Of a DNA stretch of 64,000 bases, positions 10,927-27,800 are shown piece after piece. This DNA comes from Pseudomonadota bacterium. GTDB lineage: Bacteria; Bdellovibrionota; Bacteriovoracia; Bacteriovoracales; Bacteriovoracaceae. The stretch's first letter is position 1. Every line of letters starts with the position of its first letter. Under the pieces are notes generated by a model. That model made no database searches and was not told the DNA's origin. It was given only the letters and a program-made list of their open reading frames with translations. Position numbers and translations under genes: made by a program. The stretch lies in NCBI GenBank assembly GCA_027487685.1, contig JAIYDC010000134.1, positions 1-64,000 of the forward strand, given 5' to 3'.

Positions 10927-11832
10927 ATGACTATGAAACCCTGGATGATCCTTGCCGTAACACTTGCGCTTTTTCAAGGCATAGCTAAGGCCGACACTGT
11001 CTACACAACAGTGTTCAACGTCTTCGAATCCATCAAGACAAACAAGCTTTTAATCCTTTCGTCCGTCGACGGACGAGTCTTTAAGACCAGTTTTACTGAT
11101 GAGAACAGCAAAAAAATGAAGGCCCTCGTTGGTCGCGTGGTACGCCTCGATTTTCGGGACCTCGGTCCGGAAGCTGTCATCACTTCGATCAGAGAAATTT
11201 CCCCGGGCGAGATCGACACCACCACTCTGGATTTGAACCATTTCCGCTACAACCAACTTCGGCAGTTCGCCCCAACTGAACTCCAGGGATTAGCAGACGC
11301 GAAGAAAATCTTTGATGAGATGCTTAACGACGGAGATAAGGGACGCTCTGAGTGCTTCAAGCGCGCTCACATGTGGTCCTTCGACATGTGGTCAAAGCTT
11401 GGTGTGTCTTCAGAGAAAATCTTCATCTTCTATACTAAGCGCTATCAGATTCTGGAAGAAGAGAAGTGGTGGTTCCATGTGGCCCCGATGGTCACCGCCG
11501 GGGGAATTGAGTACGTTCTCGATGGCACTTTCATGCAAAAGCCCATTACGATTAAGGAGTGGCTTGCCCATTTCATCAAGTCTGAGAAGATCACCTGTCC
11601 GGAGATTAACCGTTATCAGGAGTTCGAAGAGGGCCACTGGAACCGCCTGTGCTACTTCATGCGAGTGCCGATGTACTACTTCAGCCCTCTCAATATCGAG
11701 AACCGGGACAAGAACGGCGTTGAGCGCAACCACTGGGTCCTCGAGGAGCTTCAAGATGCAAGGAAGGCGTTCCGGAACTGGGAACGCGCTTACGAAGGCC
11801 TCGATACCGGCAAAATCATCCCAAAGTTTTAA
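10927..11832 (+). CDS. Exported protein-glutaminase-like (Gln deamidase) enzyme
   Basis: A 301-residue protein with a signal peptide (MILAVTLALFQGIAKA). The first 100 residues of the mature part form a beta-rich domain (NKLLILSSVDGRVFKTSF, GRVVRLDF). The C-terminal half carries an apparent Cys-His-Asp triad: Cys143 in SECFKRAHMW, His184 in WWFHVAPMV and Asp199 in YVLDGTF. These motifs and their spacing match the protein-glutaminase fold (Gln_deamidase_2), in which protein glutamine side chains are deamidated to glutamate. I expect secretion to periplasm or prey. The ATG at 10927 follows AGAGGAAG; an upstream in-frame ATG at 10870 would bury the signal peptide. The function is inferred from motifs only. 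Confidence 0.72.
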   Translation: MTMKPWMILAVTLALFQGIAKADTVYTTVFNVFESIKTNKLLILSSVDGRVFKTSFTDENSKKMKALVGRVVRLDFRDLGPEAVITSIREISPGEIDTTTLDLNHFRYNQLRQFAPTELQGLADAKKIFDEMLNDGDKGRSECFKRAHMWSFDMWSKLGVSSEKIFIFYTKRYQILEEEKWWFHVAPMVTAGGIEYVLDGTFMQKPITIKEWLAHFIKSEKITCPEINRYQEFEEGHWNRLCYFMRVPMYYFSPLNIENRDKNGVERNHWVLEELQDARKAFRNWERAYEGLDTGKIIPKF

Positions 11833-11841
11833 GGATAAAAA

Positions 11842-12270
11842 ATGAAAACAATCACTCTCGTCGTCATATCATTAATCTCACTTTCGGCGCTTGCTCACAC
11901 CATCGAGGGAACCCTCATCCTCAAGGGCACAGTCAGGACCAAATTTGATTTGAATGGTCTCTCCACCACTTGCCGGGCACAGGTCGAGAAGGTCAAAAAT
12001 CTCCTCCAGGAAGATTCTTACGGAAACCCCGCTTATAATGTCAGGGTTGACGTTGGTCTTTCCAATTACGATGAGACGACCGGAAAGTTTCTGCGCTTTA
12101 GTCAGGAATTATGGTTCAATAACCTCTTTGCCGTAGGAGGCAATAAGACTGAGGTACGGGACCTCGATTATGCCGCTCCCGGAGGTGCAACCCTTAAGAT
12201 CGACGGCCAAGGCCGGATCCGCAGCGTGACCTTCCCCTACAGCGGTCGCCCCCTGACTTGTAACTTCTAG
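11842..12270 (+). CDS. Small exported protein in operon with the deamidase
   Basis: A 142-residue protein with a signal peptide (MKTITLVVISLISLSALA) and a mature beta-rich part with two cysteines (TTCRAQ and the terminal LTCNF) that could form one disulfide. I recognise no family. It starts 9 bases after the deamidase-like gene with its own AAGGAT site, so it is co-transcribed and exported with it. It could be a partner, a substrate-binding subunit or an inhibitor, but nothing in the sequence decides this. A GC-rich imperfect hairpin (about 12280-12303) follows the stop but has no U-tract. Confidence 0.65.
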   Translation: MKTITLVVISLISLSALAHTIEGTLILKGTVRTKFDLNGLSTTCRAQVEKVKNLLQEDSYGNPAYNVRVDVGLSNYDETTGKFLRFSQELWFNNLFAVGGNKTEVRDLDYAAPGGATLKIDGQGRIRSVTFPYSGRPLTCNF

Positions 12271-12403: not shown

Positions 12404-14698
12404 ATGAAGTTCTTCGCGATCATCCTCTCCCTCCAGCTCATGGTCTCGCCGGTCTTGGCGCAGACGACCAGCGCTCAGAATGGGTCGACCGATCAGTCAA
12501 CGCAAGCACCAACTGGTGCAGACGGTAAGCCGATCACGGACCCCAAACAGGCGAGCGAAGTTCAGGCCCAAAAAAATGAGGAGTACGATAAGAACTCCCA
12601 GACTTCAGGTGGGTTTGAGTTCTACAGCAGGCAATCCCTCAACGTGATCAACAGCGTCATCGGAGCGAACATGATCACGCGGTGCTCATTTGGGATGAAG
12701 GTTCCGTCGATTGCGATGTTCTGGGCGGCTAGCCTCGTCTATATCGTGAGCGAGATTAGCAACGGAGGGAAGGCCCAGAATAAGGACCAGAAGGACTTCC
12801 TGACGGAGCTTGCGGAGGCGAAAAAGAAGGATCAGCAATCTCTGAAGGGCGGAGGGAACGGCGACATCCAGCGAATTACTATTGAAAAGCGGCTGGCGGA
12901 TGAAAAGCGTCTTTCAAAACTTGTGGACGATCGGACCATGTGGCTTTCTGCGGTCTCTGCGATGTACATGGCGGCGGCAATCATGGCGATCATGGAAGAG
13001 GTGAATGGGAACATCGCGGGAGTGGGTGCAGCGAACGGGACCTGTATCGGAACTGCGACGGCGCTTGCCTCGCCGTGTGGTCCTAATTTTCCTTCATGCT
13101 ATGCAACTCACTACGCCGCTTGTATGGCGATTTCGCCGACCGGAGCAATGAGTACGAAACCTAACTTCGCTGCCCCATTGCCGATCATTATTGCTGGCGG
13201 AATTTGCGGTGCTTCGACTCTCTACTCTGCGGGATGCTATGCCTACCTTGGAGCCTACTCGGCCATCGCCTGGGCCAACTGCTCCCCCCTTTGGCCTGCG
13301 TTCATGATCCAGGAGATCGCCCTTTCTTCTGCTGTCGCCATCGCCTACAGTACGGGATTTGGAATGGCGAGCGGCGACGGAAACTTCAACTACGTGAAGA
13401 TCATGATTGGGCTACTTACGTTCTTTGTGAAAGCTCTTAACCCACTCATCCAGGCCGCCTATAACTTTCCAATCCCAAGGGCGGTAACCTTCGGAATCAA
13501 TGGCGCATTGACCGTTGGGATTATCGCGGGCCTCAAGCAACGGCAGAGTGGCGTGATCCAGCCGAATATCCAGAAACTGACGAAACTCTTAAACACCTTC
13601 CGCCAGCAAACAGACGACAACCGCGGAATGAACCAGTACACGAAATCCGGTCAGGAGCAAGACGCCGCGGGCGCGACGGTCAATGGAACCGCCAACGGAA
13701 ACAACGCAGTGTCGAGTGGTGCTGATACCGGGAATAGCAAGGCCGTAGATGCGAGCGCTGGAAATGGGGGCTCCGCCGGTGGTGGAGCTAACGGCAGTGC
13801 TAACGGCGGCGTTAGCGGTGGCGCGAACCGGGTCACGCCCAACACGATCACGGCACTGCCTGAGGCAACAACCGGGAAAACCTGCGCGGGCCAGACGGAT
13901 AAAGGAATCGACATCTCAGAGAAAGCGTGTGCAAACCCGATCCGCCTTACGAGGCCAGTGGTGGGTGAGCTCGCGCCGAACGACCAGGTCCTCATGACCT
14001 CAACGACGACCCTCGCGACAGACCTCGCCAACGAGCTGGCGAGTGGGAATACCGAACGGGCCCGGGTCCTTGCCGGGGAGGTCAGCGCGAAGATGGGTGC
14101 CCTGAGCGAACTCTACGACCGCAAGAAGGCCGAACTCAATGACCATGTCCGGGCGAAAGGCGAGAAAGACTTCGACTTCCAGACAGAGGTGAGCAAGCAA
14201 CTGACGAAGGTGCAGGATACGCTCAACGACGGTCTGCGGACGGAAAAGGTCGCTGCACTACCGCCGAACTTCCGTATCGACCTTACCGACGTCGGTGCAT
14301 CAGCGTCGAATTTCGTGGAGTCGGCGGCGAAAGACGGGGGCCAGGGCAGGGACTCCGGCAAGGCCCCGAGTCAAGAGGTCGTCACAGTTGAAGCTGCGAC
14401 CCCAAGTGAAGACGCTGAGGAAAAATCAGACGAGGCCACGATCCAGGCCGCCATGGAGGAGAATGTAAAGCTTAGCGAAGCGGATCAGAAAGCGGCCGGA
14501 ATGAATGGCTATCTTGACCTAGATGAAAAGCTCTCTGTCGCGGGCAAAGGTCAGGATGGGATTTCCCCAGTTGCAGACGCCTCAATCTTTATGCAAATTT
14601 CAAACAGGTATCTACGAAGCCTCGATCGAATTCTTACTCGAAAAAAGCATAAGATCACTACCCCGAAGCAAGCTCTGGGGACAAAGAAAACCAAATAA
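12404..14698 (+). CDS. Large polytopic membrane protein with Gly/Asn/Ala linker, unknown function
   Basis: A 764-residue protein. A signal peptide (MKFFAIILSLQLMVSPVLA) is followed by a Gln/Thr-rich stretch, then five or more hydrophobic helices between about residues 90 and 380 (for example MFWAASLVYIVSEI, LSAVSAMYMAAAIMAIM, LPIIIAGGICGASTLYSAG). Next comes a low-complexity Gly/Asn/Ala/Ser linker (about 420-490) and a hydrophilic, partly helical C-terminal 270 residues. Several cysteines lie in the loops between helices. No family is recognised. It sits 117 bases upstream of the TolQ-like channel gene in the same direction and may belong to that envelope machine. It begins with ATG at 12404; no strong ribosome site is visible. 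Confidence 0.7.
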   Translation: MKFFAIILSLQLMVSPVLAQTTSAQNGSTDQSTQAPTGADGKPITDPKQASEVQAQKNEEYDKNSQTSGGFEFYSRQSLNVINSVIGANMITRCSFGMKVPSIAMFWAASLVYIVSEISNGGKAQNKDQKDFLTELAEAKKKDQQSLKGGGNGDIQRITIEKRLADEKRLSKLVDDRTMWLSAVSAMYMAAAIMAIMEEVNGNIAGVGAANGTCIGTATALASPCGPNFPSCYATHYAACMAISPTGAMSTKPNFAAPLPIIIAGGICGASTLYSAGCYAYLGAYSAIAWANCSPLWPAFMIQEIALSSAVAIAYSTGFGMASGDGNFNYVKIMIGLLTFFVKALNPLIQAAYNFPIPRAVTFGINGALTVGIIAGLKQRQSGVIQPNIQKLTKLLNTFRQQTDDNRGMNQYTKSGQEQDAAGATVNGTANGNNAVSSGADTGNSKAVDASAGNGGSAGGGANGSANGGVSGGANRVTPNTITALPEATTGKTCAGQTDKGIDISEKACANPIRLTRPVVGELAPNDQVLMTSTTTLATDLANELASGNTERARVLAGEVSAKMGALSELYDRKKAELNDHVRAKGEKDFDFQTEVSKQLTKVQDTLNDGLRTEKVAALPPNFRIDLTDVGASASNFVESAAKDGGQGRDSGKAPSQEVVTVEAATPSEDAEEKSDEATIQAAMEENVKLSEADQKAAGMNGYLDLDEKLSVAGKGQDGISPVADASIFMQISNRYLRSLDRILTRKKHKITTPKQALGTKKTK

Positions 14699-14815: not shown

Positions 14816-15457
14816 ATGGAAATCATCCAGTTTAGTATTAGATTTATCATCGAGGGCGGAATCTTCATGTACGTCATCCTCGCCGTGTGGGCCTTTGCAA
14901 TTGCCGTCGCCCTTGAGCGGTTCAAAAAGCTCGCCTACACCTACGATGTTGATGGCCCGTCATTTATGAACGAACTTCAGCGCTACATTTTATCCAATGA
15001 TATCCAGGGCGCGATCCGAGTTTGCTCCGGCTCTACGGCGGCTCTTCCCCGGGTACTCAAGAGCGGCCTGAAGCGAGCTAACCAGTCACCTGAGCAAGTG
15101 CAAAACGCTATCGATGCAACTGCGCTCGAGGTGATTCCTAAAATCGAACAACGAATCCCTTACCTTCAGCTCGCGGCGAATCTCTCAACTCTCTTTGGAC
15201 TTCTTGGAACAATCCAGGGTCTTATTCAGTCATTCTCCGCAGTTTCCGCCGCTGACCCGACTCAGAAAGCAGAAGTTCTTGCGAAAGGTATCGCTGTCGC
15301 CATGAACACCACCGCCCTTGGCCTCTTGGCGGCGATCACCATCATGATGGTTCACGCCTTCCTGATGGCGAAGTCGGAGAAAATTGTTAACGAGATAGAT
15401 GAATTCTCCGTGAAGCTCCAGGACATCCTTGGCACTAAGAAAGCGATCGACGATTAG
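14816..15457 (+). CDS. aglR: AglR-like MotA/TolQ/ExbB-family proton channel subunit
   Basis: A 213-residue inner-membrane protein with the three-helix TolQ/ExbB layout: helix 1 at about 15-35 (GIFMYVILAVWAFAIAVAL), a cytoplasmic loop, then helices 2 and 3 (LQLAANLSTLFGLLGTIQG; KGIAVAMNTTALGLLAAITIMM), including the conserved Gly/Thr pore residues. With the two ExbD-like proteins that follow it forms a proton-driven motor. The neighbouring FHA/TonB-like and TPR genes match the Myxococcus Agl-Glt gliding machine, in which AglR is the TolQ homologue, so I use that name, though a different role is possible. It has a strong ribosome site (GGAAGGGGAAG). Confidence 0.82.
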   Translation: MEIIQFSIRFIIEGGIFMYVILAVWAFAIAVALERFKKLAYTYDVDGPSFMNELQRYILSNDIQGAIRVCSGSTAALPRVLKSGLKRANQSPEQVQNAIDATALEVIPKIEQRIPYLQLAANLSTLFGLLGTIQGLIQSFSAVSAADPTQKAEVLAKGIAVAMNTTALGLLAAITIMMVHAFLMAKSEKIVNEIDEFSVKLQDILGTKKAIDD

Positions 15458-15466
15458 GGAGCGCGT

Positions 15467-15997
15467 ATGCTCAGAGTACCGACCAGCCGAAAACGTAAGA
15501 AACCTGAAGAGAAGCTTAACCTGGTCCCGATCATGGATTCGGTCTTCATCTTCATTTTCTTTCTCCTTATGTCTGCGAGCTTTCTGAAGATCTATGAAAT
15601 CGGTAGCGATGCTCCAATCATCTCCGATTCAGAGCCAGAGAAACCAGAAAAAGACCCGCTCGCCCTAACGCTTGAGATGAATACCAACGAAATAACTCTC
15701 TCCCAAGGGATACCCTCAACGCCGATCAAGAAATTTACTCGGGCCACGACCGGTGATTATAACTATGAAGAGCTGCACAGTGTCCTGATCGAACTCAAGA
15801 AGCAGCACCTGGAAGAGGACACCATCATCTTCGAACCCGTAGGTGAAGTCACCTATGAGGAGATTGTAAAGGTTATGGATGCTGTGCGGACAGTTTCAAA
15901 AACCGACGAGGCGATCTTCCGAAAAAACAAGGACGGGATCGAGGAGCGGATCAAGGATCTCTTCTCCAAAATCGTCTTCAGCAATCTAACGAATTAG
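15467..15997 (+). CDS. ExbD/TolR-family motor stator subunit (AglQ/AglS-like) 1
   Basis: A 176-residue protein with a short basic cytoplasmic N-terminus, a single membrane helix carrying the essential ExbD/TolR Asp (NLVPIMDSVFIFIFFLLM), and a periplasmic domain of about 130 residues. It pairs with the TolQ-like channel to couple proton flow to mechanical work. It begins 9 bases after the channel gene (ribosome site GGGAGCG). Myxococcus has two such TolR homologues, AglQ and AglS; I cannot decide which one this is. Confidence 0.82.
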   Translation: MLRVPTSRKRKKPEEKLNLVPIMDSVFIFIFFLLMSASFLKIYEIGSDAPIISDSEPEKPEKDPLALTLEMNTNEITLSQGIPSTPIKKFTRATTGDYNYEELHSVLIELKKQHLEEDTIIFEPVGEVTYEEIVKVMDAVRTVSKTDEAIFRKNKDGIEERIKDLFSKIVFSNLTN

Positions 15998-16004
15998 GAA
16001 ACGT

Positions 16005-16520
16005 ATGGCCAAGCGCGCTTCACGATTTACACGGAGGAAAAAAGAGGCGGTGTTCGACATCGACATCACTTCACTCCTCGATATTCTGACGATCCTTTTG
16101 GTCTTCTTACTCCAAAGCTATAACTCCTCTGGGGTTGTCATCAACGTGCCTAAAGGCATCGACCTCCCGAGATCCGCTTCGGAGTCTCTGAATAGCTTTG
16201 GGGTCAACATTCAGGTCTCAAAGTCCAACATCTGGGTCGATGATACCGAGGTCCTTAACGTCGATACGACGGGTAACTCACAGATCTATGATGAAGGAGG
16301 GCGCAGGATTGTCCCTCTTTATAACGAATTGATAAAAATCAAAGAAACCATCAAAGCCTCGGAGAAGCTATCTCCAGACGTTAAAAAGTTCTCTGGTGTT
16401 GCAAATCTGGTAGTCGACAAGACTATTAAGTTCGAATTCCTGAAAAAAGTTATGCACACTTGTGCCACTGCCGGCTATAAAGAATTCAAATTCGTTGTCA
16501 TGACGAAGACAGGAAACTAG
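16005..16520 (+). CDS. ExbD/TolR-family motor stator subunit (AglQ/AglS-like) 2
   Basis: A 171-residue second ExbD-type protein: basic N-terminus (RASRFTRRKKEA), membrane helix with the proton-binding Asp (IDITSLLDILTILLVFLL), periplasmic domain starting with the family's short beta segment (VVINVPKGIDLP). It follows its sister gene by 7 bases with a GGAAACG site. Two ExbD paralogues next to one TolQ-like subunit is the arrangement of the Agl motor (AglRQS) rather than of a TonB or Tol system. The gene faces the convergent FHA/TonB-like operon. Confidence 0.82.
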   Translation: MAKRASRFTRRKKEAVFDIDITSLLDILTILLVFLLQSYNSSGVVINVPKGIDLPRSASESLNSFGVNIQVSKSNIWVDDTEVLNVDTTGNSQIYDEGGRRIVPLYNELIKIKETIKASEKLSPDVKKFSGVANLVVDKTIKFEFLKKVMHTCATAGYKEFKFVVMTKTGN

Positions 16521-16643
16521 TACCAGGCCTTGATCAATCGTATGACCCAAGCTTGAAAACAACAGAATCATCACACTCTTCAGCCGTCCCTCTATTAAGC
16601 AGTACGGTTGAAGAGCATTATCGTGCCTAGATTCTGAATTGGT

Positions 16644-18674
16644 TTAGAGCTTCTTCGGGTAGAAGTTCATTGGCTGCTTCACCTCAACTGTCCCGCCTCC
16701 GAGAGGTTCCGGGAACGTGATCCCTTTCAAAACATTCAGGACGCAGAAACTGACGTCTCTAGGGAGTGGGGTAGATCCATCGAGGCCCGCTTTTGAAACG
16801 TGGCCAGAGCTACCGATAACAAAATTAAGTCGAATGGACCCGTTGATCTCGGTCCCCTTCGCCTCCAACTCCCGCTGGTAGCAGCTCCGGAACTGAGGTA
16901 AGAATTCCATTAAACGGCGGCGGATCACATCTGGATCCATGGAGCCAAGGACCACGGTCTCTGAAGGAATACCTGCGGTATAGATCGCCCGCTTGGACGA
17001 AAGCCCCTCAGCCCCTTTTGACTGTCCCAGAACTCCTGTAGTGGCGCCGACCAGGCTTCCCTGGTTTGTTGCGATGTCGGCGGTTTTGATCTGGCCTGTA
17101 CCACTACTCACTCCCGTAGTCGCTCCGACCATCTCACCACCTGAACCTGAAGCCGTTTTAGTCTGAACTCCGGTCAGGGAGCCACCCTTGGCAACGAGGG
17201 AACTAATGGAGCTCTTGAAGTCCGCTGACTTGTAGACTTCCACGTGCCCTTGAGTTTTCATCGTGAGCTGCGACTGGGCCGTCGGTGCCTTCGTTGAAGG
17301 AAGCTTCGCTGTCTCAGTCGAATTTGAAGATGCTGCCGGAGTCGTCATGGGCTTTGTCGTCGGCTTTTTCACCGGCTCAGTCCCCTGCTTGACGATCTTC
17401 TTTTCCGGAGCAGTACGCGTGCCTGGGTCAGGCTTCTGATTTTTAACTTTTGTGTCAGCAACATCCGGCTTTTTGATGTCCGGTTGTTTTTCGACTGCTT
17501 GTTTCTTTTCAACAGCGATCTTATCCGGTGCTTTTTGAGCAACTTTCGGAGCGTTCTCAGTCTTCTCAACAACGGGCTTCTCAGCAACCGTGAGTTTCTC
17601 ACGGTAGAGGATGGTCGCAAGACGCTCAGGCGCAAGCTCGTTTTTCCGCTCATCCACCGGAACTTCGATAGAACTAAGCCCAACGGAAAGGAGAACGAAA
17701 CCAAACATGAAGATCGCTAGATACTTCCGAAACTCTGGGTCACGTTTAAGAATCGGCGCGGAGGCAATCTTCGGCGGGGCCTGAACATTCCTAATGAAGA
17801 TCTGAAGATCGTCTTTATGGAGGCGAAGAAGGTCCTGCCCATGGAGTTCCACGCTGGTTGCGACATGCCCTGTGTCTTTTTTCTTATCACTCAGGAGGAA
17901 AACACCGAAGCCCGGTAGAGTATGAACGAGAGCATATCCGCCATGGACGTCAACGAAGGGAAATTTGTCATTTTTCCCGAGGTACGGGAACTCCAGTTCC
18001 TCTTGCCTTGAAAGAACTCCGGTGATCTGATAAGTCTGTCGCCCCTCTGGTAGGTAGTCGACGCTGAAGACCTGATCACGGAATAAAATAATAACTTCAA
18101 CTGCCTGCTTGGCAGCTTCGTAACGAAAGATTGGATAGAGTTCATCCTTATCTTCAAAAATGTACTCACTAAACTCGGCCTTGGGGTCGGCGGCAAGCGG
18201 ATATACAACCGAGGGAGCATTGGTTGATACAGCAGGAGCAGTCTTAGGGAGAGCCTTAGGTGAAGCTGGGAGATCCGGCAGAGCTGACGTCTTAACGGAC
18301 GCTTCACCACGTGCAGGTTCAAGTGTTTCGAGAACCGGCGGGAGGGACTCCTCAGGTACGTAATTTCGAAATTCAAAGTTAACATCGGCAAGACGAAAGA
18401 CGTCGCCGATTCGAAGTTCCTTGACGATGATCTTATCATCATTGACGAAGGTCCCGTTGGTCGAGTTCATGTCGTAGATCATGGCCTTGTTGTCGAAGAG
18501 CTCAAGCACCGCATGAACGGCCGAAACCGCATCAGCAGGGACGACGAGGTCGCAGCTCTCTGTGCGTCCCAGGAGGATTCGCCCCTTCCCGAAGACTCCA
18601 CTCCGTACACCGGCCACTTTGGTCAGAGGGCGCAGTTCATACATCTTCTGGTGTTTGCTCTTTTCTAATTCCAC
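16644..18674 (-). CDS. FHA domain, membrane helix and AgmX/PglI-type TonB-like C-terminus (GltG-like)
   Basis: A 676-residue protein with an FHA domain at about 20-105 (GRILLGRTESCDLVVP, NSTNGTFVND) that binds phospho-Thr, a Pro-rich linker, a second cytoplasmic domain (about 170-300), one membrane helix at 318-337 (LAIFMFGFVLLSVGLSS), a long Lys/Pro/Thr-rich periplasmic arm and a C-terminal TonB-like domain of about 100 residues (FRSCYQRELEAK, GSIRLNFVIGSSGHVSK, ITFPEP). This domain order fits Myxococcus GltG and AgmX/PglI-like transducers, which carry motor energy from the inner membrane to envelope TPR and barrel proteins. It is the last gene of the operon and lies opposite aglR. Confidence 0.82.
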   Translation of the reverse strand: MELEKSKHQKMYELRPLTKVAGVRSGVFGKGRILLGRTESCDLVVPADAVSAVHAVLELFDNKAMIYDMNSTNGTFVNDDKIIVKELRIGDVFRLADVNFEFRNYVPEESLPPVLETLEPARGEASVKTSALPDLPASPKALPKTAPAVSTNAPSVVYPLAADPKAEFSEYIFEDKDELYPIFRYEAAKQAVEVIILFRDQVFSVDYLPEGRQTYQITGVLSRQEELEFPYLGKNDKFPFVDVHGGYALVHTLPGFGVFLLSDKKKDTGHVATSVELHGQDLLRLHKDDLQIFIRNVQAPPKIASAPILKRDPEFRKYLAIFMFGFVLLSVGLSSIEVPVDERKNELAPERLATILYREKLTVAEKPVVEKTENAPKVAQKAPDKIAVEKKQAVEKQPDIKKPDVADTKVKNQKPDPGTRTAPEKKIVKQGTEPVKKPTTKPMTTPAASSNSTETAKLPSTKAPTAQSQLTMKTQGHVEVYKSADFKSSISSLVAKGGSLTGVQTKTASGSGGEMVGATTGVSSGTGQIKTADIATNQGSLVGATTGVLGQSKGAEGLSSKRAIYTAGIPSETVVLGSMDPDVIRRRLMEFLPQFRSCYQRELEAKGTEINGSIRLNFVIGSSGHVSKAGLDGSTPLPRDVSFCVLNVLKGITFPEPLGGGTVEVKQPMNFYPKKL

Positions 18675-18682
18675 AATATCCC

Positions 18683-18934
18683 CTAGCGAATGCCGTCGAT
18701 GGCCTTCTTCATTTCCTGATTAAAGTTTTCTCTCTCTGGAAGCTTGTTACGGAATTCCTTTCGCAGTCGCGGAGAGATCGAAAGGTCCCCGGGTGATCCG
18801 GCCTCCCCTTCGACTCCAATTTCGTCGAAATCAAATTTCTCAAATTTTTTATACTCGTAGCGAACATTCGACTTGGGATCTTCCGCCAAAGCATGAAGAG
18901 AAAATAACAAGAGGGCAAAGGTTACGAGCTTCAC
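18683..18934 (-). CDS. Small exported protein in the Glt-like operon
   Basis: An 83-residue protein with a signal peptide (MKLVTFALLLFSLHALA) and a charged mature part (EDPKSNVRYEYKKFEKFDFDE...). No family is recognised. It overlaps the TPR lipoprotein gene by 4 bases upstream and ends 8 bases before the FHA/TonB-like gene, so it is translationally tied to both. A small periplasmic adaptor of the machine is a fair guess but unproven. Confidence 0.7.
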   Translation of the reverse strand: MKLVTFALLLFSLHALAEDPKSNVRYEYKKFEKFDFDEIGVEGEAGSPGDLSISPRLRKEFRNKLPERENFNQEMKKAIDGIR

Positions 18935-19824
18935 GGTGCTCCTCCTAGTTTTGAACGAACGGTTGCGTAGTAGCGCTGAAGATTGGCGGTCTTAGGATCG
19001 GCAATCTTATCAAAGACCTTCTGCGCCTCAATCTTATCTCCTAACTTCTGGAGGGTGAGGGCAAGATTTAATCCAACCTCCGCCCGGGTCCAGGACGCGC
19101 GTGGTATCGCTCGATAGGACTCTAGTGCACGGGGATAATCTGCCTGAATAAAATACGTTGTCGCCACCGCCGTCAAGAGATCAATGTCTGTGGGTGACTG
19201 AGAGAGAAGCCCTTGAAAAAGAGGGAGGGCCGCGTCGGCCAGGCCGTAGGTTAGATAAAGTCGCGCTAAGTTGTAGCGCGGGGTCTTCGCGAACTTTGCT
19301 TCACGATTAGCACGTTCAAATGCTACCAGCGCTTTCTGATCCTGTCCCTGCCTGGAGTACATAACTCCAATATTATTGAGCGCAGGAACGTAGTTCGAAC
19401 TCATCTCAAGGGCCTTATTGTAGAATAATAGGGCCTTGCGTGAGGAGCCCGAATTTAAGTGGCAATTTGCGACTTGATTCCAATAGGCCGGTACTTTCTG
19501 ATAGCGATGATAAGCAGAAGACGCTACTTTAAATGCCTCTGCAAATTCACCTCGGGAACATCGGACTGAGATCTCCAAAAGAGGATCACCGGCAGTTTTC
19601 ACGCCCTCAAGATCCTTCGCACTGTAACGGTCGAGAGTTTCATCTTGTAGTGCAGGTGTCATCACTGAGGTCGCACCGGCGTAAAAATCCGCGACATCGC
19701 TACTTCTTAATGGCTTCTCTTTCTGAAAGCTAGGGGTAGGAGTAGAATCAGGAGCAGGTCCGCTCTTTTTCTCAGGCGTCGATGAGCAGGCGGCTAAAAG
19801 GAGGAGAGGAATTAGGTGTTTCAT
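18931..19824 (-). CDS. TPR lipoprotein, AglT/GltE-like
   Basis: A 297-residue protein that opens with a lipobox (MKHLIPLLLLAACSS), so it is a lipoprotein with acyl-Cys13. Several tetratricopeptide repeats follow (NSGSSRKALLFYNKALEMSSNYVPALNNIG; NLARLYLTYGLADAALPLF). Such TPR lipoproteins (AglT, called GltE in the Glt scheme) belong to the envelope part of the Myxococcus gliding complex and interact with other TPR and barrel proteins. It overlaps its neighbours on both sides by 4 bases, so the operon is tightly coupled. Confidence 0.8.
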   Translation of the reverse strand: MKHLIPLLLLAACSSTPEKKSGPAPDSTPTPSFQKEKPLRSSDVADFYAGATSVMTPALQDETLDRYSAKDLEGVKTAGDPLLEISVRCSRGEFAEAFKVASSAYHRYQKVPAYWNQVANCHLNSGSSRKALLFYNKALEMSSNYVPALNNIGVMYSRQGQDQKALVAFERANREAKFAKTPRYNLARLYLTYGLADAALPLFQGLLSQSPTDIDLLTAVATTYFIQADYPRALESYRAIPRASWTRAEVGLNLALTLQKLGDKIEAQKVFDKIADPKTANLQRYYATVRSKLGGAP

Positions 19825-22688
19825 CGTCGACCTCCCCGATCCATGAGGGCCGCTTCTTTCTGAGTGAAGAAGCGTTTATGCATGTCCTGCTCATTGAAGA
19901 GAACAGAAAAGTTAGAGAGCGAGAGTATCTTATTATCACTGATGAGCTTACGGACTTCATTTCTTTGCTTGCGGGCGTTCTGAAGAATAGGACCGTGGAC
20001 ATCCGCCATGGCCTTACGGAAGCTTTCCACGAATTCAGGAGATTTTTCAGGAGGAGAAAACGCCTTCAGTGTCTCTCCGAATTCTTCATAGCCTGCGATG
20101 ATGTAGCGGTACCCTTCGACTATGCCTTTCCCGGATCCAATCTTCTGAAGCTGGTTTACATCTGTCGCCATCTGATCGAGAAGCTGAAGCTTGGACTTAA
20201 GGGCGTTCTCAAATGTCGCCTGAGGGAATGAGAGACGAATCTGATCCAATCGGCGCTTCTTGTCGGCAATGATCGAGACAAGCCTCTCCGCCATAAGGTC
20301 TAACGCTTCTACAGGAACATCAAGCTTCTGTGTCTTGGCCTGCTGATAGAATCGGTTCTGCTTATCGGAGATGGCCCTCGCCTCTTCAGCCTGTCCGATG
20401 GTGGCCAGCTCCCGGCGGTAATCTTCGTAAGGCTTAATAAGTAGGGGCCCATTCTTAGGATTCTGCTCAAGCTCACGGAGCATTCGCTCATAGGTGTCCC
20501 ACTGCTTAGTTTTCGAAAGATCCTTTAATATCTCAAGCGCCACTTCTGTGGCCGTCACCTCAGGAACACCACAGCTCTTGGCCATACTGTGAACTTCGAG
20601 GGCCTTTTTAAGATCATCATTAGCGAGAGCGATAAAAGCTGCATTCTTAAAAGACGCGGCTTTACTATTCGTCCGCTCACGGCAAAGCTTCACGAGAAGA
20701 CGATGGGACAGATCAGCGGAGGGAGCGAACTGCTGCCTTAGAAAGAGCCCGGCGGCGATGCTCAAATAGGAGTCAGCAAACTTCACAACATCGGCGACGT
20801 CCATTTCCCGAAGAGCTGTGCTCGCCCAGCTATAAGTCTGTGAGGTATCCCCCAGCTCAAAGTAGAGTGCTGCGAGGTTATAAGACGCATTAATCTTGGC
20901 CTTCGGTGTAGATTCGGAAGAAGCATGGATCTGATGATAACCCTTGAGGGCCACCGCCTTCTCCCCTTTCTCGAGAGACTGCTGAACGCCTTCGATTTGA
21001 AGTTTCGTCATTAATCCCCGCAGGGCCTCGGCATACTTAGCTGAGACCTTGAAATCACCGGCATTAATCCTTGTGACGTAAGACTTGACGGGGCCGTAGT
21101 CCTTTCGACTTCGGTAATACTCCATCACCTTGGCCAGCATCGCCTCCTGAGTTTTAAAATCCTCCGGAAAATTCTTAGCGAAGCTAGCTAAAGTTTTCTC
21201 CGCTTCTGCTACATTGCCAGAATCAAACTGAGCGTTGAAAAGCTTCACAAAGATCGCCTGGGCACGAGCGGAGCGAGTATCTACGGTAACGTACCGGGAG
21301 TAAACCGGGATGAATGAGCGATCGGCCGTGGCCTTCGGAAGGGTAGGCTGACCAAGGGCAGCGAGCATTCCCTCGAGGCTTTGAGACAGGATTTTCTTAT
21401 CTCCGTCCACGCGGGCGCCATCGAACGCCGAAATGTAAAGACCGATGGCCTTACTAAAATCTCCAGCAGCGAAAGCAGTTTCCCCTTGGAAGAAGAGCTT
21501 CTCAGCGCGCTTCCCAGGATTGAGTTGAGCAGCAAGTTCAAAGTACGCAATGGACTCTTTCGCCTTCTGTTGCTTGATTTTGGGGACACGATCATAAACA
21601 TTGGATGCGGTAGCTTTCTGGAGCTCAGCCGCCAATTTGTTAACATGGAAAGTGAGCTTTTCAAACTGCGATTTCTCGAGGCCCCCCTTGAGGTGAAGTG
21701 CAACCAACTCACGAGAGGTCGAAAGATGCTCAGCAGTGCGGTTAAATTTCTCAAAGAGATTGAGTTCCGCGAGGAGAATTTCAACACGACGACCACGGTT
21801 CTTCTCGATGGCCTTGACCTTGCCTAAGAGTTTCTCGGCCTGATCGAAACGTCCCTGCGCTGTGATTGCGGTGGCAATCTTTATAAATTGATCCGTATAG
21901 CTTAGGCCTACGCTCTCAAAGAATTGAATCGCCTCGTTGATCTGATTGGCGTCGACATAGAAGATCCCTATATCCCGTTCCACTGCCGAACGCATGTCGA
22001 CATACTTTCCGCCAGATTTGCGATGAACCTCGCGCATGAGGGAGATCCCGCGGTCATAGTTTCTGGTCCGGTAGTAAGACCACGCTAGATTAAATGCATC
22101 CTTGGTCCACCACTTATCATCTGCCCCCTTAAGTGTTGCCTCATAAAGTGGGATAGCGGCGCTGTATTTCTTATCATTAAAATAAATGTCGGCCAGTGCC
22201 TGACGTGACTTCCCAAGAACCTTTGGATCCCGGGAGCTACCGACGGCCAGTTGGAAATACTTGCGTGCGCTGGACTCTTCGCCTAGCTCTTTATAGTTGT
22301 AGGCCAGGATATAATAAACTTCACCTATCGATGAATATTGAGGGAACTTCTTGGCCACCACCAAGGCCGCATCGTTGGCCGCGGCAAAGTAGCGAGTAGA
22401 CTGTATAAAAGCTTCCCGTTTATTTAAGCGGGCCCGCTCAGCAGGAGGAACAGCTAAGTACTTCTCATTTTCGACTTCACGAAAAAGACGTCCCTTCTCG
22501 AGATTAAGCTCCGCAACTCGGAGCAGTGTTTCTGGTGCCTTGTAGTCTTGCTGCTTGGCCAGGCGGGTGACTTCGGCAAGCTCCTCGTCCACAATCGCCA
22601 GGATTTTCTTCCGGCGCTCGTCGAGAGTTGTCCGTGCGTTCGCAACGGCTTGGATCAAGAGGGTTAGAAGGATCAAATACTTTAGCAT
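19821..22688 (-). CDS. Large exported TPR protein, GltD/AgmU-like
   Basis: A 955-residue protein with a signal peptide (MLKYLILLTLLIQAVANA) and an almost all-helical body with many tetratricopeptide-type repeats (LLRVAELNLEKGRLF; VYYILAYNYKELGEESSARKYF; AFNLAWSYYRTRNYDRGISLM; AYNLAALYFELGDTSQ-like units). In Luciano-type Glt clusters the large TPR proteins GltD/AgmU sit in the periplasm and bridge inner and outer membrane parts; by position and architecture this is the best match. It overlaps the gene before it by 7 bases and the TPR lipoprotein gene after it by 4 bases. Confidence 0.78.
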   Translation of the reverse strand: MLKYLILLTLLIQAVANARTTLDERRKKILAIVDEELAEVTRLAKQQDYKAPETLLRVAELNLEKGRLFREVENEKYLAVPPAERARLNKREAFIQSTRYFAAANDAALVVAKKFPQYSSIGEVYYILAYNYKELGEESSARKYFQLAVGSSRDPKVLGKSRQALADIYFNDKKYSAAIPLYEATLKGADDKWWTKDAFNLAWSYYRTRNYDRGISLMREVHRKSGGKYVDMRSAVERDIGIFYVDANQINEAIQFFESVGLSYTDQFIKIATAITAQGRFDQAEKLLGKVKAIEKNRGRRVEILLAELNLFEKFNRTAEHLSTSRELVALHLKGGLEKSQFEKLTFHVNKLAAELQKATASNVYDRVPKIKQQKAKESIAYFELAAQLNPGKRAEKLFFQGETAFAAGDFSKAIGLYISAFDGARVDGDKKILSQSLEGMLAALGQPTLPKATADRSFIPVYSRYVTVDTRSARAQAIFVKLFNAQFDSGNVAEAEKTLASFAKNFPEDFKTQEAMLAKVMEYYRSRKDYGPVKSYVTRINAGDFKVSAKYAEALRGLMTKLQIEGVQQSLEKGEKAVALKGYHQIHASSESTPKAKINASYNLAALYFELGDTSQTYSWASTALREMDVADVVKFADSYLSIAAGLFLRQQFAPSADLSHRLLVKLCRERTNSKAASFKNAAFIALANDDLKKALEVHSMAKSCGVPEVTATEVALEILKDLSKTKQWDTYERMLRELEQNPKNGPLLIKPYEDYRRELATIGQAEEARAISDKQNRFYQQAKTQKLDVPVEALDLMAERLVSIIADKKRRLDQIRLSFPQATFENALKSKLQLLDQMATDVNQLQKIGSGKGIVEGYRYIIAGYEEFGETLKAFSPPEKSPEFVESFRKAMADVHGPILQNARKQRNEVRKLISDNKILSLSNFSVLFNEQDMHKRFFTQKEAALMDRGGRR

Positions 22689-24091
22689 TCAGACCTCAAC
22701 GCGAAGACATAGTCGCCGAGTTCATCGGCCCAGAATTCGCCATTAAAGGTCCAGAAGTACTGCTTGTCGTTGCGTTCAATGTACTTCACGTCTCCTCGCT
22801 TTTTTGAGGGAGTGGCGTCGCTCTGGTAAAGACGTTCTTTCCGTTGGGCAAGGACTTCCAGTTTAATGTAGCTCATTCCCTGAAACGAAGAATAGAGCTC
22901 AGCGTACTTAGATACTAGACCTGCGCGGACATAAGCACCAATCGAACTGCGGTATTCATCAGCGAGAACCCGAACGTTTTTGATGAGGTTTTGAGTCATA
23001 GGGCTTTGGGATCGTTTGCGGAGGTCATTGTACTCGATTATGGCCGCCGTCAAGGCACTCTTCATCTCTCGGTAGGCAGCGTCTTTTCGGATTGACCTGA
23101 GGATAGGATTGACAAGCAGAACAGGTGCCGGTCTGTTATCCTCGAAGTCGGCCATAAGGTTATAAAAATAGCGATAATCCTTGCCACGGGACACGAGGAA
23201 GGAGCGGAGTTCACGGGATGGATTAAGGAGCTCGGAGTAGAAATCATCTACCGTCTTCTTAGCATCATCATAAAGGCACATCTTAAGATAAGTCAGTGCC
23301 TTCAAGACGTCGACCTCGGGTCTGAAGATGAAATTAAACACCGGTGCTTTGTACGAAACGAGTTTGCCGAGTGTGCGATTATAATTCTTTTGATAGTAGC
23401 TCGTCCACGCCTCTTCAAAAAGGATTTCAGGCCAGACGAAGGAGTCTTTCTCGATATCGAGGTAGGTCAGTTCTGCTTTCTTAAAGTCACGAGTTGTGAA
23501 CTGAACCCGGGCGATGCCAGCGACACAGTAGTCACGGTTCGTTTCAAGCTGGTCGCGCATCGTTACAGTCTCAACTTTTCCCATCCGGACCTCGGAAGCG
23601 CGAACGCAGTCACGGAAGTGAGACTCGGCATCCGGAAAGTTACCGAAATGAGAGAAAATGGTCCCTTTGAAATTAGCTACGAATGGATAAGCTGGATGAT
23701 CGACGGAAACACCATTGAGTTCGATCATTGCTTCCTGCGGCTTTCCGCGTTTGAAAAGTTTTTTCGCAAGGATGAAGCGGATGCTACCTGAGCGTGAACG
23801 CCGAAGCTGATCTTCCGGCAGGGCCTCAAACGGCTTAACCCCAGTATGATAAAGCATCTTATCCAGGGCCTCTTCAAGTTCGGTATCCAGTGTGCGGTCA
23901 GTGCGGACGATAAAGTCTTTCATCCACGGCACTGGTGAATAGTAGTGGCCTGCCTTTACAAGGTCGATCACGAGCCTCCGGCTCCCGGCATAAGAAGCTG
24001 AGCTCTTTGCGTAGTTCCGCTCGGCGGACTCAAAAGAGGCAACTGCGACAGGAATCGCGAGGAGAGAAGTGATTAATAGCTTTGAGAACAT
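22682..24091 (-). CDS. Exported helical (TPR-like) protein of the Glt-like operon
   Basis: A 469-residue protein with a signal peptide (MFSKLLITSLLAIPVAVASF) and a helical body with TPR-like pairs (RFILAKKLFKRGKPQEAMIELN; PFVANFKGTIFSHFGNFPDAESHFRDCV). It overlaps the next gene by 7 bases and follows the barrel gene by 15. By order it may be the GltC-like component, but I see no motif that proves this. Confidence 0.7.
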   Translation of the reverse strand: MFSKLLITSLLAIPVAVASFESAERNYAKSSASYAGSRRLVIDLVKAGHYYSPVPWMKDFIVRTDRTLDTELEEALDKMLYHTGVKPFEALPEDQLRRSRSGSIRFILAKKLFKRGKPQEAMIELNGVSVDHPAYPFVANFKGTIFSHFGNFPDAESHFRDCVRASEVRMGKVETVTMRDQLETNRDYCVAGIARVQFTTRDFKKAELTYLDIEKDSFVWPEILFEEAWTSYYQKNYNRTLGKLVSYKAPVFNFIFRPEVDVLKALTYLKMCLYDDAKKTVDDFYSELLNPSRELRSFLVSRGKDYRYFYNLMADFEDNRPAPVLLVNPILRSIRKDAAYREMKSALTAAIIEYNDLRKRSQSPMTQNLIKNVRVLADEYRSSIGAYVRAGLVSKYAELYSSFQGMSYIKLEVLAQRKERLYQSDATPSKKRGDVKYIERNDKQYFWTFNGEFWADELGDYVFALRSEC

Positions 24092-24106
24092 CCTTGTTCT
24101 CCTTTC

Positions 24107-24823
24107 TTAAAATGCGAAGTTGAGACCAGCGCCCAGGTCATAGTTCGTAAAATAGTCAGTCTTCGTTGCCTTGTTTAGCCCTGTATCTGCTGTCGTTCGC
24201 TCTGCACGGTACGTAACACCAGTAACATCAAGACGTAGACTCCACCGCGTACTCAAGTAAAAACGAAGCCCAACATTCCAGAGTGCTCCGACTGTACTCT
24301 CAGAAGTCAATTCCTTCTGCGCTGCCTGAGATAGGCCCGTGTTGAAGAGATTACGGTTATCCTTGGTGCTGATACTTGCGGCACCCAGACCAAACATCCA
24401 GTCATAGTAGAAAATCTGGTTGAACGTGTTGATCTTCGAATAAAAGGGCGACCACATCAGCATCGCACCTGTAACCGTATCAATCCTTCGATAAAAGGGA
24501 AACGCTCCCTGTGACTTAACGCCCTTTGCAGTGTCACTTTCAGTGGAGGTGGACTTAGCAAACATGCCCTCTATTCCCCAGTCTTCGCTAAAAAAGAATC
24601 CTGCGCGCAAGCTTCCACCATAAGCGTCGAGGAAGTCCTGGCTTAGGTTATAGGCGCCTGTGGCACCGAGGTAAACCGTCCCATCCTTTCGAAACTTACG
24701 GTTTTGAAGGACATAGATTTCTTTATCTGAATCGAGCCAAGAGAAATCATAAAGCGATTTCTCGTCCGCGATGGCGAGGGCGCTCATAAGGGACATGGTC
24801 ATAACCAGGATGAGTCGTTTCAT
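24107..24823 (-). CDS. Outer membrane beta-barrel protein
   Basis: A 238-residue protein with a signal peptide (MKRLILVMTMSLMSALAIA) and an alternating, aromatic-rich pattern of short strands (AYNLSQDFLDAYGGSLRAGFFFSEDWGIEGMF; TRWSLRLDVTGVTYR) ending in a terminal Phe (LGAGLNFAF), the usual outer-membrane insertion signal. It is the first gene of the Glt-like operon, where Myxococcus has outer-membrane porin-like GltA/GltB, and is the likely surface anchor of the machine. The ATG at 24823 is favoured; the longer in-frame start at 24889 puts 22 residues before the signal peptide. Confidence 0.75.
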   Translation of the reverse strand: MKRLILVMTMSLMSALAIADEKSLYDFSWLDSDKEIYVLQNRKFRKDGTVYLGATGAYNLSQDFLDAYGGSLRAGFFFSEDWGIEGMFAKSTSTESDTAKGVKSQGAFPFYRRIDTVTGAMLMWSPFYSKINTFNQIFYYDWMFGLGAASISTKDNRNLFNTGLSQAAQKELTSESTVGALWNVGLRFYLSTRWSLRLDVTGVTYRAERTTADTGLNKATKTDYFTNYDLGAGLNFAF

Positions 24824-24836
24824 TTTTACTTCACTT

Positions 24837-24869
24837 GTTAGAACTATCACTTGATAGGAAAATTCTAAC
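24837..24869. promoter_or_regulatory. Nested inverted repeats upstream of the barrel gene
   Basis: GTTAGAA (24837-24843) pairs with TTCTAAC (24863-24869), and inside it CTATCA (24844-24849) pairs with TGATAG (24852-24857). It sits 14 bases before the barrel gene start and after the addA stop. It has no U-tract, so it may be a leader hairpin or an operator of the Glt-like operon. Confidence 0.4.
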
Positions 24870-24898
24870 ACGCTCTGTGGCAGGTGCAAGTTCGCGGA

Positions 24899-27800
24899 TT
24901 AACGAGGGCAAATGCTACCGTAAGAACACCGACTGCAGTGATCGGGATTGGTGCGCCAAGGCTCATTTTGAGAACGCCAGACAGGATAAAGCTCTTCCTC
25001 ACAACTAACCTTTGAGATGGTTCGCGTAAGGAGCTTCTCCTCGTCGACGAAGCAGAGGATAAGTTCCACCTCCTCGTTCACTGCAACCTTGCCCAGATCG
25101 TAGAGGCCGTAGGCATAGCAGGAGAGCTGCAGCCAGTAATGAAGGAGATTATCCTGAGTCAAACGCCCAGTTTTAAAATCCCAAACCTGAGTTTTGCCCT
25201 CGCCTTTTGGAAGCAAGAGAAGATCCGGAATACCGGATACCATAAAATTAAAGAGCCGAAATTTAAGCTGTTCCTCAGCGATAAAATGAAAAGCATCGGC
25301 CTTCTGGGCCAGGAGGTCCAGGGCCCAGCGGACAGGGCCAGCCTCAACTTTCCCAAAGCTCTCACGAGGGACGACAAAATTAGCGCGGATCCCCGATGCG
25401 ATTTGGGCGTGCAGAAATGTTCCCCGATCGGCAGATGAACGGACTACAGTCGCCAATTCGTCGCCCTCTTCTTCAACGTAGGTCTGGGGCCCTTCAGGTG
25501 CAGTGACTTTGAGCGTGTTGCTCAAATAAAACTTTCGTGGACAGTCGACCAGAGCATTCAATCTGGTCACACTGAGCTCGGAAGAAATCAGGAGCTCGGA
25601 GCTCCCCTCGCCCTTGGGCAAAATTCCCATAGGATCGTGAAAGAAAAGTGGAAGCTCCGGGAGCGAGCGCTCGGCGACATCGGCGGCCGGTTGGGGTGGA
25701 AGAGGAAGAGCTGTCACGAGAGCATGAGCATCAACCCGCTCAAGCCAAGAGCTGAGGCCCAGGATCCAGCTGTTCTTAGGGATACTGAACGCCTTTTCAG
25801 CGAAGGTAAAATCAACCCAGACCAGCTTCTTCTTCGCCCGAGTGCAGGCGACGTAGAAGAGTCGTTTGGCCTCGGAGAAATTCTTATACCGGCCAAGTTC
25901 GGCTTCAAAAACGTACAACGGGGACTTCTGTTTCTCCCGACGGCTGATATCGCGGTACCACTGGAAGCTTCCGGGTAAATTTCCGAAGAGGCCTCCGTCA
26001 GATTGGTCCCGACCATTAGTGTAAATGCCTCCCAGGAAGACAACGTCGAACTCCAGGCCTTTTGAAGCGTGGGCCGACATGATCTGCACCTTATGGGCTT
26101 GATCTCCGGACCGAAGATCGAGGCTCAAACGCGGATTCTCTCCGCGGGTGAGTTGCACCAAGACACCTTCCGGATCCTGGTGGTAGAGGCCCGCTATGGT
26201 GTCGATGGTTTCCAGGTTGATATCCGCATTCTCGTTGGTTAGACCCAGGGAATGCAAAAACTTCCTAAAAGCTTCCACCAGACCCCAGTAGCGAACGTTC
26301 TGGTCAAACTCTTCCAGGACTTGGGCATCAATGCTTGGAGAGACACCCAGAACCTTGAAGTAACTCTGCATGATAAAGAGAGCAAACTGATTATGGGTCT
26401 CGGCCCGAGTATCAAATCGCCGCTTCAAGAGACAGAGGAAGATACCAAGAAAAGGGTCGTCAAGGAGGTCAATCTTGAACTGCGCGGTAAAGCCAATCTT
26501 GCGCTCAATTAGAGCGCGGATCAACTCTCCGGAGGGTCTCAACTTAGTATACAGGATAGTACAGACCGAATCCGAAGCTCGGCGCTCGAGCTCTACTGCC
26601 TCAGCAATCGCCCGTGCTTCGAATCGGTTCAGGTCTTCGTTCCGGAACTTTCCGTCACGCTCGAGGTCGCGCTCAAGGCCCGCTTTAAGGATCTGGATCT
26701 CCCCTCTTTCACTCACTTCAGTCTCAGGTGGAACACTCTGATCCTCGGAATTAACAGTGAACGGATCAAGGCCCTCAAAATTCTGACCAAGGGGCAGGAT
26801 CGTGCGGAAGAGTGAGTTATTAAAGCCGATCACTTCCGGAAGTGAGCGGTAGTTATTTGCCAGTGAAAGAACCCGCGGGACGAGTTCGGCGCAGTCCCGA
26901 AAAACGGAGAGCTCCCCGCCCCGAAAACCGTAGATCGCCTGTTTGGCATCTCCCACACAGAAAAGGCGACGAAAGTCGTCACCGATCATGGCGCGAATAA
27001 TCCGAAACTGTAAATCTGAGGTGTCCTGGAATTCGTCCACGATAAAGTAGGAGAAATTCCGCTGGATGCGTTCTCGGTCTTGATCGTTCTCAAGGCCCAG
27101 CGCCACAGCGTACTCAATATCTCCAAAAGTCATTCCCTGATTCGGATCAAGCCGCTCTTCGACAAAGCGAAAGACGTCGAGGCAGAGTCGCTGCCAAGGA
27201 AGGACCTTGATCTCATAGTTTGCCGTAAAATCGGCTATGACCTCACGCCACTTGACCACCCAGTCTCTGAGAGCAACCAGACCTTTCTTCGCTGCCTCCG
27301 AGGCCAGAGTCTTCTTGCGTGCCGTCCGCTCGCCGTCAAGGCGGCCGATTCTACTAAAGACCTCAGTGTAAATAGTAAACTTATCCACACTATCGACAGA
27401 CGGCAGACCCGTCGCCTGAAAGGTCGCCACCAGGCGCTCGAAAGCGGAGCGCTCTTTCTCTTCGTCAAGCTCTAGGTGGTGAACGGCGAGAAGGGCCTCA
27501 TCAAGTTTATTCAAGAGAAAGGACTTACCCAAAAGGTCACCGAGAGAGGACGGTGAGGTTTCGGTCGGGTCAAATTTTTTCCACGCAAGTCGAAGACCCG
27601 GGTCGCTGAAAACGTGGGTAAAGGCCGCGAGAAGGTCGCGCTTCTCACGGACGATAATGTCCTGGAGCTCGCTCTCGATATTTAGCGCACGTTCCGAAAA
27701 CCACTCATCGATGAGTTTACCGACCTGGTCGCTTCGTTCGGGAGCAAAGATAATTTCCGCTTCCGTTGAGAGATGCGGGAAGTGGCCAAGCGCGATGAGC

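What the first reader, a model, noticed from the sequence alone, without database searches (positions are those of the whole stretch)
10927..12270. Exported protein-glutaminase-like enzyme coupled to a small exported partner
An apparent Cys-His-Asp set (SECFKRAHMW, WWFHVAPMV, YVLDGTF) with C-to-H spacing of 41 residues, behind a signal peptide, next to a 142-residue exported protein 9 bases downstream. In a predator-type genome, secretion of an enzyme that deamidates Gln in prey or envelope proteins would be a distinct weapon or remodelling tool; the partner could be an inhibitor or a targeting subunit.
Basis: partly seen in the sequence, partly recalled or inferred. Interest (0 to 1): 0.65.

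Follow-up and report, generated by a model that had tools for sequence, protein, structure and literature searches.

The report
Exported protein-deamidase zymogen with dedicated partner
A bacterium of a mostly predatory family exports an enzyme of the protein-glutaminase family, which in known members turns glutamines in other proteins into glutamates, always together with one small exported barrel-shaped protein that is predicted to bind it; relatives show that such enzymes are often paired with small exported companions, some of which look like the enzyme's own 'safety plug' made as a separate protein.

Summary
10927-11832 encodes an exported 301-aa protein over the Pfam cut-off for Gln_deamidase_2 (PF18626; E 3.6e-12). 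C143/H184/D199 align with C156/H197/D217 of crystallised protein glutaminase, are invariant in 57 relatives examined, and the predicted catalytic domain superposes on solved protein glutaminases (Z about 11.5). The 142-aa partner (11842-12270) is a predicted closed beta-barrel. In 116 genomes of the order, enzyme ortholog and partner occur in the same 22 and nowhere else, 8-14 nt apart, and co-evolve beyond shared ancestry. The pair is a removable cassette between gmhA and an AglRQS-like gliding-motor operon. New here: residues 23-92 form an OB-type domain homologous to the protein-glutaminase pro-region; its invariant Gly49 aligns, through a relative family, with pro-region Ala47, the position whose Gln mutant was crystallised. 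Elsewhere in the phylum, enzymes lacking this domain carry a homologous small exported protein downstream: the plug in trans. A third partner type is a lipoprotein. I read P0002 as a cognate exported regulator, inhibitor more likely than targeting subunit, but this is inferred. Catalysis, docking site and any anti-prey role are untested. Verdict: real; a new variant of a known kind.

The parts
10927..11832 (+). Exported PF18626 (protein-glutaminase family) enzyme P0001, 301 aa
   Evidence: Pfam E 3.6e-12; PDB 8z3i E 5.8e-4; fold match Z 11.6/11.5
10927..10992 (+). Signal-peptide-like segment of the enzyme (residues 1-22)
   Evidence: read from sequence; conserved as a hydrophobic N-terminus in orthologs; no dedicated predictor run
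10993..11202 (+). N-terminal OB-type domain (residues 23-92), homologous to the pro-region of protein glutaminase: cis pro-domain
   Evidence: DSSP E-E-E-H-E-E; OB-fold matches; A3 profile aligns pro-PG from pro residue 54; homologous to the trans family
11071..11073 (+). Gly49, invariant; aligned via the type C family with pro-PG Ala47, predicted tip of the active-site plug
   Evidence: 38/38 invariant; alignments
11269..11829 (+). Papain-fold catalytic domain (residues 115-301)
   Evidence: aligned to 2zk9 residues 1-185, Z 11.5, 144 residues, rmsd 4.3
11326..11337 (+). NDGD motif with a one-residue insertion just before the catalytic Cys, found only in enzymes that own this partner
   Evidence: D135 is a gap in 94% of paralogs
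11353..11355 (+). Cys143, catalytic nucleophile (= C156 of pro-PG)
11476..11478 (+). His184 (= H197 of pro-PG)
11521..11523 (+). Asp199 (= D217 of pro-PG)
11791..11814 (+). C-terminal tail YEGLDTGK (residues 289-296), only in enzymes that own this partner; candidate partner contact
   Evidence: orthologs at least 90%, gap in 81-100% of paralogs
11842..12270 (+). Partner P0002, exported 142-aa closed beta-barrel
   Evidence: AF2 pLDDT 93.7; best Z 6.5 over 108 residues to beta-barrel domains
12007..12036 (+). Most conserved stretch of the partner (QEDSYGNPAY, a hairpin loop between two long strands); candidate enzyme-contacting loop
   Evidence: conservation window and DSSP
14816..16520 (+). 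Context, not part of the cassette: AglR/TolQ-like (14816-15457) and two ExbD/TolR-like genes (15467-15997, 16005-16520)
   Evidence: Pfam MotA_ExbB, ExbD, ExbD

Best explanation
A two-gene exported enzyme/partner module of the protein-glutaminase family. Shown by comparison: P0001 is a PF18626 papain-fold protein with an intact Cys143-His184-Asp199 triad and an N-terminal OB-type domain homologous to the pro-region of protein glutaminase; P0002 is a small exported beta-barrel found only with this enzyme. Inferred: after export the enzyme is held inactive by its own pro-domain, with the hairpin at Gly49 lying where Ala47 of the Chryseobacterium pro-enzyme lies, in the active site. P0002 binds the enzyme in the periplasm or at the outer membrane and acts as its dedicated regulator, most likely an inhibitor or antidote that protects the producer's own envelope, less likely a targeting or activating subunit. 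Once released, Cys143 would attack the side-chain amide of Gln in proteins, giving Glu and ammonia, on envelope, secreted or prey proteins.
For: PF18626 over cut-off; nearest solved structures are all protein glutaminases, by sequence and by fold; triad invariant in 57/57. Pro-domain: a profile of the enzymes matches pro-PG 3a56 at E 8.6e-7 but mature-only PG at 6.6e-4, the gain coming from the pro-region. Partner: same 22 of 116 genomes, adjacent every time; no partner-only genome in 291 of the phylum; distance matrices correlate at r 0.66 after removing the AglR and GmhA signal, 0 of 2000 permutations reaching it; the linked pair folds with pTM 0.86, higher than I would expect if the barrel were not placed on the enzyme (my estimate). 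Regulator reading: other PF18626 genes are followed by small exported partners far more often than neighbouring genes are (24/64 against 6/97), and the commonest partner is homologous to the pro-domain itself. Precedent: papain-fold C10 proteases of Bacteroides are co-transcribed with small exported beta-sheet inhibitors, some lipoproteins (PMC3462683). The partner has no invariant Gln, so it is unlikely to be a fixed deamidation substrate.
Against: No activity data. P0001 already has a cis pro-domain, so a second inhibitor may be redundant, which leaves room for a targeting or activating role. The docking site is unknown (no coordinates or PAE). P0002 has no clear solved relative; Z 6.5 is in the range of common barrel arrangements. 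The joint model used a linker made by reading two stop codons as Gly plus the partner's own signal peptide, which can favour contact.
Confidence: 0.5

Rival explanations
1. P0002 is a targeting, anchoring or activating subunit: it docks on the exported enzyme and brings it to a surface, a substrate or the gliding machinery next door.
For: The enzyme has its own cis pro-domain; the cassette sits directly upstream of AglRQS-like motor genes in two genera; the partner-owning clade has extra conserved enzyme segments (NDGD, C-terminal tail).
Against: Seven genomes of the genus have the motor genes without the cassette, so it is not a motor part; neighbouring PF18626 types use pro-domain-like partners, which favours a regulator.
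Confidence: 0.3
2. The enzyme has diverged in reaction: a transglutaminase (cross-linking) or a cysteine protease using the same triad.
For: The papain-like superfamily holds deamidases, transglutaminases and peptidases with one triad (PMC10318531); protein glutaminase is considered related to transglutaminase (PMC9396377).
Against: All nearest solved relatives are protein glutaminases; the 41-residue C-H spacing and the PF18626 match are kept.
Confidence: 0.15
3. P0002 is the dedicated substrate of the enzyme: a surface barrel whose Gln residues are deamidated to mature it.
For: Obligate adjacency and co-evolution fit a substrate as well as a regulator.
Against: No Gln position is conserved in 20 partners; a stable docked prediction fits a binder better than a transient substrate.
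Confidence: 0.08

Closest known systems
Protein glutaminase of Chryseobacterium proteolyticum and Flavobacterium FBPG (PDB 2zk9, 2ksv, 3a54-3a56, 8z3i; EC 3.5.1.44; Pfam PF18626)
   Same: Profile, Cys-His-Asp triad with 41-residue C-H spacing, papain fold, signal peptide, homologous pro-region in front of the catalytic domain.
   Different: About 14-20% identity in structural alignments; conserved C-terminal tail of its own; part of a two-gene cassette with an exported barrel; I know of no described adjacent partner for the food-enzyme glutaminases.
Staphopain/staphostatin, SpeB/Spi and Bacteroides C10 protease/staphostatin-like inhibitor pairs
   Same: Papain-fold exported enzyme with a small inhibitor gene directly next to it, co-transcribed; Bacteroides inhibitors are small, beta-rich and exported, some as lipoproteins (PMC3462683).
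   Different: Those enzymes are proteases; P0002 shows only general beta-barrel fold matches; inhibition not tested.
Agl-Glt gliding machinery (AglRQS plus Glt proteins)
   Same: Adjacent gene order AglR-AglQ-AglS followed by convergent FHA, TPR and outer-membrane-barrel genes, like the described gliding loci.
   Different: The glutaminase cassette is not part of it: genomes with the motor and without the cassette exist.

Membership tests
Protein glutaminase (PF18626, Gln_deamidase_2) | Profile match over curated cut-off | tested here: met
   46.9 bits against 25
Protein glutaminase (PF18626, Gln_deamidase_2) | Cys-His-Asp triad in the PG order, aligned with C156/H197/D217 | tested here: met
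Protein glutaminase (PF18626, Gln_deamidase_2) | PG variant of the papain fold | tested here: met
   AF2 model against 8z3i/2zk9/3a56: Z 11.6/11.5/11.4, 140-149 residues, next unrelated row 8.6; prediction, not a solved structure
Protein glutaminase (PF18626, Gln_deamidase_2) | Signal peptide and N-terminal pro-region | tested here: met
   N-terminal hydrophobic segment by reading; pro-region homology by profile; cleavage not shown
Protein glutaminase (PF18626, Gln_deamidase_2) | Deamidation of protein-bound Gln | not testable with these tools
   needs an enzyme assay
Staphostatin-type inhibitor (for P0002) | Small beta-barrel encoded next to its papain-fold target | tested here: met
Staphostatin-type inhibitor (for P0002) | Fold match to solved staphostatins | tested here: inconclusive
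   best listed rows are other barrels at Z 6.5 or below
Staphostatin-type inhibitor (for P0002) | Blocks the enzyme's active site | not testable with these tools
   no coordinates and no assay
Agl-Glt gliding machinery component | Present wherever the AglRQS-like locus is present | tested here: not met
   7 same-genus genomes keep the motor genes without the cassette

The most novel reading that the evidence does not exclude
Bdellovibrionota hold a diversified set of exported protein-deamidase modules in which the active-site plug is modular: fused in cis as an OB pro-domain (as here), split off as a separate exported protein encoded downstream, or joined by unrelated dedicated partners (the P0002 barrel, an EF-hand-like lipoprotein), working as enzyme/antidote pairs that modify envelope or prey proteins.
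Probability: 0.3. Interest if true: 0.75.

Novelty: new variant of a known kind. Interest (0 to 1): 0.52.

Why it matters
Protein glutaminases are known mainly as food-processing enzymes; their role in the organisms that make them is, to my knowledge, largely open. PF18626 genes occur in 172 of 291 genomes sampled from this predator-rich phylum, up to 12-13 per genome in one genus, so secreted protein deamidation may be a common tool there. The paired barrel, the lipoprotein and the trans pro-domain give direct handles: a 1:1 inhibition test would show whether these enzymes are kept in check by antidotes, and would supply natural inhibitors for an industrial enzyme class.

Tried and rejected
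NCBIfam gave nothing useful for either protein. P0002 as a copy of the pro-domain: rejected, hhalign 0.3-2.5%. P0002 related to the lipoprotein partner: no support, 0.2%. Partner as fixed Gln substrate: no conserved Gln. In-frame spacing between enzyme and partner in most genomes as a sign of read-through: explained by a conserved stop/Shine-Dalgarno overlap (TAAGGA) with an 8-14 nt gap. Cassette as motor part: rejected. The promoter and terminator scan was at or below chance. Foldseek for P0002 alone gave no match below E 0.12, and no staphostatin was among the listed rows. VIA-align of the joint model aligned pro-PG only from residue 85 on, so whether the OB domain sits as in pro-PG is open. 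No paper held ties PF18626 to Bdellovibrio. The main structural paper (Hashizume 2011) is not held; the active-site position of Ala47 rests on the PDB entry title (A47Q mutant), the paper's title and my own knowledge.

Full report
Observation. The two ORFs are exactly as described: 10927-11832 (301 aa) and 11842-12270 (142 aa), 9 nt apart. The proposed triad residues are C143, H184 and D199. Relatives keep both ORFs, and substitutions are strongly biased to synonymous sites, so both are real genes.

Enzyme family. hmmscan puts residues 142-215 in PF18626 Gln_deamidase_2 at E 3.6e-12, 46.9 bits against a cut-off of 25. Single-sequence search of the PDB finds the protein glutaminase 8z3i first (E 5.8e-4). 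A profile of 38 relatives finds pro-PG 3a56/3a54 (E 8.6e-7 and 1e-6) and mature PG (6.5e-4); in that alignment the triad falls on C156, H197 and D217 of pro-PG. All three residues are invariant in 21 orthologs and 36 paralogs.

Structure. I folded the mature enzyme and partner as one chain (window 10993-12267, the two in-frame TAA codons read as Gly, the partner's signal peptide as linker) with 63 related rows: pLDDT 92.1, pTM 0.86, only the linker disordered. Foldseek's first three hits are protein glutaminases; VIA-align gives Z 11.6 (8z3i), 11.5 (2zk9) and 11.4 (3a56) over 140-149 residues. Residues 23-92 form an OB-type domain (rows from Z 8.6 down, mostly OB folds). From the chain composition I estimate pTM near 0.7 if the partner were placed at random, so 0.86 points to a confident placement; this is my estimate, and no PAE or coordinates were available. 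The partner alone folds to a closed barrel (pLDDT 93.7) with only general barrel matches (best Z 6.5 over 108 of 123 residues).

Pairing. In 116 genomes of the order, close orthologs of the enzyme are in 22 genomes and the partner in the same 22, always directly downstream. A partner profile over 291 genomes of the phylum finds it in two genera only. Enzyme and partner distances correlate at 0.78, and at 0.66 after regressing out AglR and GmhA; no permutation of 2000 reached this. Enzymes that own the partner have private features: an NDGD motif with an inserted Asp just before the catalytic Cys and a C-terminal YEGLDTGK tail. The partner's most conserved stretch is a hairpin loop, QEDSYGNPAY.

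Locus. The order is thioredoxin, gmhA-like SIS gene, enzyme, partner, then MotA/TolQ (AglR-like), ExbD, ExbD; the convergent strand carries FHA, TPR, TPR and an outer-membrane-barrel gene, resembling the Agl-Glt core described in PMC3169522. In seven same-genus genomes lacking the enzyme, gmhA is followed by the AglR-like gene directly (six) or by an unrelated ORF (one, G033). The pair is therefore a removable cassette at a stable site; a functional link to gliding is possible but not shown. In the window and in G027 an unrelated 764-766-aa ORF lies between partner and motor.

A wider pattern. The genome has six PF18626 genes. Of 51 paralogs read in related genomes, 21 have one lipoprotein family directly downstream (gaps -4 to 15 nt), with a DxNxDGxxD-like motif and an invariant Gln. 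Across the phylum 172 of 291 genomes have PF18626; 24 of 64 genes read there, against 6 of 97 neighbouring genes, are followed by a coupled exported ORF (Fisher p 8e-7, crude signal-peptide rule). Twenty of these form one family of 82-113 aa, 'type C'.

The plug. Type C is homologous to the OB domain of P0001's family: hhalign 77%, score 29.7 over 61 columns in one direction (31%, 22.6 in the other), against a maximum of 10.4 in 100 column-shuffled controls and 9.7 reversed. Searching the whole PDB with the type C profile, pro-PG ranks third (E 0.24), and its matched stretch is exactly the pro-region 33-88, placing the conserved Ala of the type C HAA motif on Ala47; the first-ranked hit (desmoplakin) is probably chance. 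The same type C position aligns with Gly49 of P0001, invariant in 38 of 38. PDB 3a54 is the A47Q pro-enzyme, reported in a paper on pro forms converted into an enzyme-substrate complex (title). The type C enzymes that could be read in full in this check (9 of 20) have no recognisable OB domain in cis. Hence the pro-domain appears to be carried in cis (here) or in trans (type C). This is inference from three weak but collinear matches.

Mechanism. Shown: family, triad, pro-domain homology, obligate pairing. Inferred: zymogen state with the Gly49 hairpin in the active site; P0002 binding; inhibition as its most likely effect. Literature supports that the PG propeptide lowers activity (pro-PGB about 17-fold less active than mature, PMC13139226) and that exported papain-fold proteases can be paired with exported beta-sheet inhibitors (PMC3462683). 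Role against prey: untested.

Verdict. Real, correctly recognised enzyme; the partner is genuine and specific. New variant of a known kind.

Noticed in passing
window 12404-14698; L107 11311-13611: 764-766-aa ORF with signal-like start, membrane stretches and low-complexity regions, no Pfam or NCBIfam match; seen between partner and AglR-like gene in the window and G027.
   Followed up: partly
window 14816-24889: AglR/ExbD/ExbD-like genes followed by convergent FHA (676 aa), two TPR proteins, a 469-aa protein and an outer-membrane-barrel protein: looks like an Agl-Glt gliding core cluster.
   Followed up: partly
L102 6302-6946, L103 4736-5662, L066 2413-3102 and 18 more loci: Lipoprotein family coupled to other PF18626 paralogs, with a DxNxDGxxD-like motif and one invariant Gln (H.Q.IH.G..CP); could be partner or substrate.
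   Followed up: partly
L152, L153, L155, L158, L163-L168, L171, L172, L174, L177, L179, L182, L192, L196, L204, L217 (downstream of the PF18626 gene): Type C family: small exported proteins homologous to the protein-glutaminase pro-domain, encoded in trans beside enzymes; the enzymes that could be read lack it in cis.
   Followed up: yes
genomes G060, G064, G065, G069, G072, G108, G112: Expansion of PF18626 to 10-13 copies per genome in the window's genus.
   Followed up: no
window 24899-30521: UvrD-like helicase with PDDEXK domain (1089 aa) next to a second PDDEXK protein (789 aa): probable AddAB-type recombination pair.
   Followed up: no
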